Positions 3,785 to 4,420 of a stretch of DNA of 36,581 bases are shown here, piece after piece (positions within the stretch are counted from its first letter, which is position 1; each line of letters opens with the position of its first letter). The DNA is from Candidatus Melainabacteria bacterium RIFCSPLOWO2_02_FULL_35_15 (GTDB lineage: Bacteria; Cyanobacteriota; Vampirovibrionia; 2-02-FULL-35-15), in contig MFRN01000021.1 in the NCBI GenBank assembly GCA_001784585.1, forward strand, positions 1-36,581, read 5' to 3'. The notes beneath the pieces are model-generated. The model searched no databases and was not told where the DNA came from. It saw only the letters and a list, made by a program, of their open reading frames with translations. The position numbers were made by a program, and so were the translations under genes.

Positions 3785-4008
3785 TGTGGAATGAAGCGGT
3801 ATCAAAGCCACTTCTTTCTCAGTCTCAGACAGCGTTTCATCAAGTTCGAACCTCAAATATTCTTTCTCAAGAGATTTATAATTTTCTTTTATTGGAATTA
3901 ACCATTCTTTGCTTTCAATTGGAGATTAAATAAATTAACAAAAGTTCCATTAACAACAAAAGAAGCAATCAAAATTCAAAACAGACTAAAAAAGCACAGA
4001 GATAAAAT

Positions 4009-4173
4009 GTTTTTGCCTACCGCCCTCCTTGCTTCGTACCTCGCTTGTCGGGCTTTGCAAAGTGCTCGCAGTCTGCCTTTTGTATCATTTTCCAGGTTTT
4101 GCTGGATAAACCAGGCAAAACCTTTCTTTGTAAGTTAGTCAGATGAGACTTAGTAACATAGCTAGGCAGTAAC
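4009..4173. mobile_element. 165-bp MITE-like non-autonomous IS66-type element
   Basis: Exact 8-bp direct repeats (GATAAAAT) flank this segment at 4001-4008 and 4174-4181; IS66 elements make 8-bp target duplications. The ends are imperfect inverted repeats: left GTTTTTGCCTAC, and the right end read in reverse is GTTACTGCCTAGC (about 10 of 13 matching). The right end (4161-4173) is identical over 13 bp to the right end of the host IS66 remnant (4408-4420), so both were probably moved by the same transposase. There is no transposase frame inside. A strong hairpin (4094-4105 with 4111-4123, one bulge, 5-nt loop) followed by a T-rich run could act as a terminator. Its composition is more GC-rich than the surroundings. 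Confidence 0.78.
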
Positions 4174-4407
4174 GATAAAATCTTAACTTTCATGAGAGAT
4201 TCTGATATTCCTTATCATAATAACGGTTCAGAAAGAGCAATAAGAAAAGCAAAAATACATAGAAAAGTATCAGGATGTTTTAGAAGTGAAACTGGAGCTC
4301 AGAGATACGCCATACTAATGTCAATAATTGATACAGCTAAAAAACATGGTCTTAGAATGTTTGATGCCTGTCAAAGACTTTTTTCAGACAGCCTTACGTT
4401 TGCTCAT

Positions 4408-4420
4408 GCTAGGCAGTAAC
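4408..4420. repeat. IS66 right terminal inverted repeat, second copy of 4161-4173
   Basis: The 13-bp sequence GCTAGGCAGTAAC is identical to 4161-4173, 247 bp upstream. It marks the right end of the IS66 remnant and contains its stop codon. The repeat links the miniature element and the transposase remnant as one family. Confidence 0.75.

What the first reader, a model, noticed from the sequence alone, without database searches (positions are those of the whole stretch)
3902..4420. Nested insertion: a 165-bp IS66-type miniature element inside an IS66 transposase remnant
The exact 8-bp duplication (GATAAAAT), the inverted ends and a right end identical to that of the host element show that the small element was mobilised by the same transposase family. 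Removing it restores the frame precisely. It indicates an active IS66 source in the genome at some time and a MITE family not named before, as far as I know.
Basis: seen in the sequence. Interest (0 to 1): 0.65.

Follow-up and report, generated by a model that had tools for sequence, protein, structure and literature searches.

The report
Family-wide IS66-end miniature transposon in Melainabacteria
A 165-base parasitic DNA element without genes sits inside the broken tail of a jumping gene; nine more near-complete copies are in the same genome and related copies occur in every sampled genome of its bacterial family, so it is a real, previously unnamed miniature transposon that probably borrows that jumping gene's enzyme.

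Summary
The genome has 9 further near-full-length copies (97-99% identical) and several fragments; 5 of the 9 have exact 8-bp duplications and 2 more have one mismatch. It also has one intact single-ORF IS66 transposase (460 aa) whose right end GTTACTGCCTAGC is identical over 13 nt to the MITE end. Related elements (114-174 bp) occur in all 11 sampled genomes of the family (Candidatus Melainabacteria) and in none of 278 other genomes of the class. The cores are unrelated to IS66 but keep two hairpins by compensatory changes. Relatives lack an intact IS66; some keep its tail or ends. Best reading: an old, family-specific MITE lineage cross-mobilised by ISBst12-group IS66 elements, with a recent burst in this genome. 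That IS66 acts in trans is inferred, not shown. It is a new member of a known kind; the conserved two-hairpin core is the unusual part.

The parts
4009..4173 (-). MITE, 165 bp (the strand used for the family alignment is minus, 5' end at 4173)
   Evidence: Exact boundaries from TSD and shared ends; 9 further near-full-length copies in the genome; model match 158 bits
4001..4008 (.). left copy of target site duplication GATAAAAT
4174..4181 (.). right copy of target site duplication GATAAAAT
4009..4020 (+). MITE terminal repeat, GTTTTTGCCTAC
4161..4173 (-). MITE terminal repeat, GTTACTGCCTAGC, identical over 13 nt to the IS66 right end
4094..4123 (-). hairpin H1 of the MITE core
   Evidence: covariation: 9 of 16 H1+H2 pairs changed on both sides; 99.6% paired in 45 other elements
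4022..4053 (-). hairpin H2 of the MITE core (outer 4-bp stem)
3917..4420 (+). host: C-terminal remnant of a single-ORF IS66 transposase, interrupted by the MITE; right end of that IS at 4408-4420 with the stop codon (4417-4419) inside the terminal repeat
   Evidence: PF03050 E 1.6e-12; 68% identity to P0001; same end in C31 and C25

Best explanation
[quoted passage not shown] Its roughly 13-15 bp ends are those of ISBst12-group IS66 insertion sequences. An IS66 transposase made elsewhere in the cell recognises these ends in trans and inserts the element, which creates an 8-bp target duplication. The core does not derive from the IS. It carries two hairpins kept by compensatory substitution, so the core is probably under selection, perhaps to make the element tolerable between genes or for a role of the DNA strand in transposition. 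The lineage was found only in one family of Candidatus Melainabacteria, has split into subfamilies by genus, and amplified recently in this genome. Shown: ends, TSDs, copies, distribution, covariation, intact IS66 ORF. Inferred: trans-mobilisation and any role of the hairpins.
For: Nine further near-full-length copies at 97-99% identity; 5 of these 9 with exact 8-bp TSD and 2 with one mismatch. In 60 further copies found by a covariance model, without TSD used to choose them, 16 have exact and 11 one-mismatch 8-bp TSDs at the model's own boundaries, against expected fractions of about 5e-5 and 9e-4. An intact 460-aa transposase: PF03050 E 7e-42, zf-IS66 E 5.5e-7, NCBIfam transpos_IS66 281.6 bits over a cut-off of 180. 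The 13-nt end match to the IS is exact and nothing else in the core matches beyond chance. ISDge4, an ISBst12-group IS66 that was seen to transpose, has TIRs GTGACTACTCAGCA/GTAACTGCTCAGCA, one 449-aa ORF and an 8-bp DR (PMC12898284); the IS right end here matches 11/14. Model hits in 11/11 family genomes and 0/278 others of the class. Covariation.
Against: No intact IS66 transposase was found in the ten relatives that carry the MITE; only tails of 32-54 residues in three of them. The intact copy on C31 has no 8-bp TSD of its own. The shared end is short (13 nt) and the other MITE end matches less well (about 10/13).
Confidence: 0.82

Rival explanations
1. A MITE mobilised by a different, unrecognised transposase of the family; the 13-nt end likeness to IS66 is convergence or distant ancestry only.
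For: Relatives with dozens of end motifs lack an intact PF03050 protein.
Against: The IS66 ends in this genome and in the G007 remnant match the MITE ends, and the TSD length is that of IS66. No other long element with these ends was seen in the loci inspected. Multicopy IS are easily lost from draft assemblies: both IS66-type ends on C8 and C25 stop at contig ends.
Confidence: 0.12
2. An internal-deletion derivative of the IS66 element itself (classic MITE origin).
For: Shared end; a true internal-deletion derivative with IS66 tail and left end exists in G007 (L118).
Against: Apart from the 13 nt at one end (and 8 nt at the other) there is no match between the MITE and the IS; the G007 derivative looks different.
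Confidence: 0.04
3. A non-mobile structured RNA gene or regulatory repeat that only looks transposon-like.
For: Two covarying hairpins; most copies intergenic.
Against: Exact 8-bp duplications at dozens of unrelated sites and insertion into a transposase reading frame show that it moves; no Rfam match; no terminator-like site.
Confidence: 0.02

Closest known systems
ISBst12 group of the IS66 family (e.g. ISDge4 of Deinococcus geothermalis, PMC12898284)
   Same: single transposase ORF of about 450-460 aa, TIR GTAACTGCTCAGCA against GTTACTGCCTAGCA here, 8-bp duplication
   Different: the MITE has no ORF and an unrelated core; the C31 transposase is only about 32-35% identical to the best hits in the plasmid collection
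Bacterial MITEs that share only ends with a known IS (e.g. MITEPsy1 with ISPsy2, MITEPsy2 with ISPsy30; PMC3189936)
   Same: short, multicopy, no gene, ends near-identical to an IS, sometimes inside other mobile elements
   Different: different transposase families and TSD lengths; here the partner is IS66 and the core has covarying hairpins
Structured intergenic MITEs of bacteria (QMITE2 of Coxiella, BOX/RUP/SPRITE; review PMC10969869)
   Same: stable secondary structure, mostly intergenic
   Different: no sequence relation known; no IS66 MITE appears in that review (0 occurrences of IS66)

Membership tests
MITE | short, no transposase gene | tested here: met
   165 bp; relatives 114-174 bp; no ORF of 60 aa or more
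MITE | terminal inverted repeats | tested here: met
   9/12 in this copy; end consensus over 39 elements
MITE | target site duplication | tested here: met
   exact 8 bp here; 16/60 exact and 11/60 one mismatch in a set not chosen by TSD
MITE | multiple near-identical copies | tested here: met
   9 full-length copies in G000 compared, mean pairwise identity 97.7%
MITE | ends shared with an autonomous element in the genome | tested here: met
   13/13 with the IS66 right end; C31 ORF intact
IS66 family, ISBst12 group (the putative partner on C31) | IS66 DDE transposase | tested here: met
   PF03050, zf-IS66, NF033517 above cut-offs
IS66 family, ISBst12 group (the putative partner on C31) | single ORF, no tnpA/tnpB | tested here: met
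   one 460-aa ORF in a 1582-bp element
IS66 family, ISBst12 group (the putative partner on C31) | 8-bp target duplication | tested here: not met
   the C31 copy has CAGCCATC/TAATTTTT at its ends; this one copy may have lost it or been rearranged; other IS66 ends lie at contig ends and cannot be tested. Membership of the transposase in IS66 rests on the protein. The MITEs do have 8-bp TSDs
MITE mobilised by this IS66 | trans-mobilisation by the transposase | not testable with these tools
   needs an assay

The most novel reading that the evidence does not exclude
The MITE core is a functional structured element: two hairpins kept by compensatory substitution across a bacterial family while the sequence turns over, either as a structured RNA that makes the element useful or harmless between genes, or as a single-strand DNA feature needed for IS66-type transposition.
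Probability: 0.3. Interest if true: 0.6.

Novelty: new member of a known kind. Interest (0 to 1): 0.42.

Why it matters
No MITE partnered with the IS66 family was found in the papers searched, and how IS66 elements transpose is little characterised. A 165-bp substrate with defined ends, dozens of natural variants and a compact single-ORF transposase is a convenient system to learn what IS66 recognises. The covarying hairpins raise the question of why selfish DNA keeps a structure.

Tried and rejected
The transposase protein against named genome contigs found nothing. Rfam: no family. Internal-deletion origin rejected. Intrinsic terminator: none by the simple scan. Empty-site test in the same-genus genome G001 for the L004 copy: the gene beside it is 80% identical and no MITE lies there, but the intergenic flank does not align to the base, so it is inconclusive. 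The fold of one copy alone is only modestly better than shuffles (z -2.45); the case for structure rests on covariation. The 39 elements were chosen with a TSD of at most 2 mismatches, so their TSD rate was not used as evidence; the set, not chosen by TSD, was.

Full report
Observation. The sequence shows GATAAAAT at 4001-4008 and 4174-4181 around a 165-bp element. The element interrupts the reading frame of an IS66 transposase C-terminus; joining the flanks restores it through to the stop codon, which lies inside the terminal repeat of the host IS. The joined reading matches PF03050 and is 68% identical over 107 residues to the intact transposase on contig C31 of the same genome. The last 13 bases of the MITE and of the host IS are the same. 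IS66 homology begins near 3917; upstream of it lie a different repeat fragment and tRNA-Ser.

Copies in the genome. The window's genome (1.94 Mb, 45 contigs) has nine further near-full-length copies at 97-99% identity, plus truncated and diverged ones. Flanks show exact 8-bp duplications at five of the nine (TATAATTG, CACTTTAG, GAACTTTA, ATTAAATA, ATTAAATT) and one mismatch at two more. Simple ORF calls place the inspected copies other than the window's between genes. Their mean pairwise identity, 97.7%, is higher than in any relative examined (means of 69.7-91.7%), which points to a recent burst here.

The putative partner. One intact IS66 transposase is present (C31; 460 aa), with IS66 DDE and zinc-finger domains, in a 1582-bp single-ORF element with ends GTTTCTGCCTAGG and GTTACTGCCTAGC. 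This fits the ISBst12 group; ISDge4 of that group has similar ends and an 8-bp duplication (PMC12898284). The C31 copy has no duplication of its own. Further IS66-type ends stop at the edges of contigs C25 and C8, which suggests more copies that did not assemble. The MITE matches this IS only at the ends (13 nt and 8 nt), so it is an ends-only MITE and not a recognisable deletion derivative.

Distribution. DNA search found relatives of the MITE in the ten other sampled genomes of the family and in none of 86 others. A covariance model found it in 11 of 11 family genomes and in none of 278 others of the class. Named records place the family in Candidatus Melainabacteria. The end motif GTTAYTGCCTAG occurs 42 times in G010 and 20 times in G007, against 0 for the reversed pattern in each. 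Subfamilies differ by genus: about 164 bp in most, an additional form of about 122 bp in G006 and G010, and a 114-bp form in G001. In 60 copies chosen by the model alone, 16 have exact and 11 have one-mismatch 8-bp duplications. Intact IS66 is absent from the relatives' assemblies, but tails remain in G007, G008 and G010, and G007 has an internally deleted IS66.

Structure. In 22 diverse elements two hairpins are paired in 99.1% of cells, with 9 of 16 pairs changed on both sides, above all 500 shuffles and far above slid controls. In 45 further elements aligned without structure, H1 is paired in 99.6% and H2 in 98.3% of cells, with 9 and 30 two-sided changes (shuffle maxima 4 and 15). These 45 were found with the model, so they are not fully independent, and relatedness inflates shuffle tests; the G001 form L111, with two long hairpins of unrelated sequence, makes the same point without statistics. 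What the hairpins do is unknown: no terminator-like site was found and there is no Rfam family.

Verdict. The element is a new MITE family of a known kind. Mobilisation by IS66 is likely but not shown. The conserved two-hairpin core is the feature most worth following.

Noticed in passing
window 3785-3916 and G000:C7:9091-9151 (L043): A repeat fragment lies directly downstream of tRNA-Ser-like genes at two loci (90% identical over 61 bp); its minus-strand reading (KEWLIPIKENYKSLEKEYLRFELDETLSETEKEVALIPLH) resembles a reading downstream of the C31 IS66. Pfam names nothing; perhaps the remnant of an element that inserts behind tRNAs.
   Followed up: partly
G007:C160 (L118:1497-1751): A 255-bp internally deleted IS66 with the transposase tail at one end and an IS66-type left end at the other: a second, different kind of non-autonomous IS66 derivative.
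   Followed up: partly
G000:C8:31582-31658, G000:C25:5199-5277, G000:C29:18613-18666: Contigs end inside IS66-type or MITE ends, so the true copy numbers of both are probably higher than the assembly shows.
   Followed up: partly
L136:873-1218 (G010:C51): Two MITEs of 164 and 174 bp sit next to each other in the same orientation, with three copies of ATTATAAC around and between them; a 122-bp MITE lies on the same contig.
   Followed up: no
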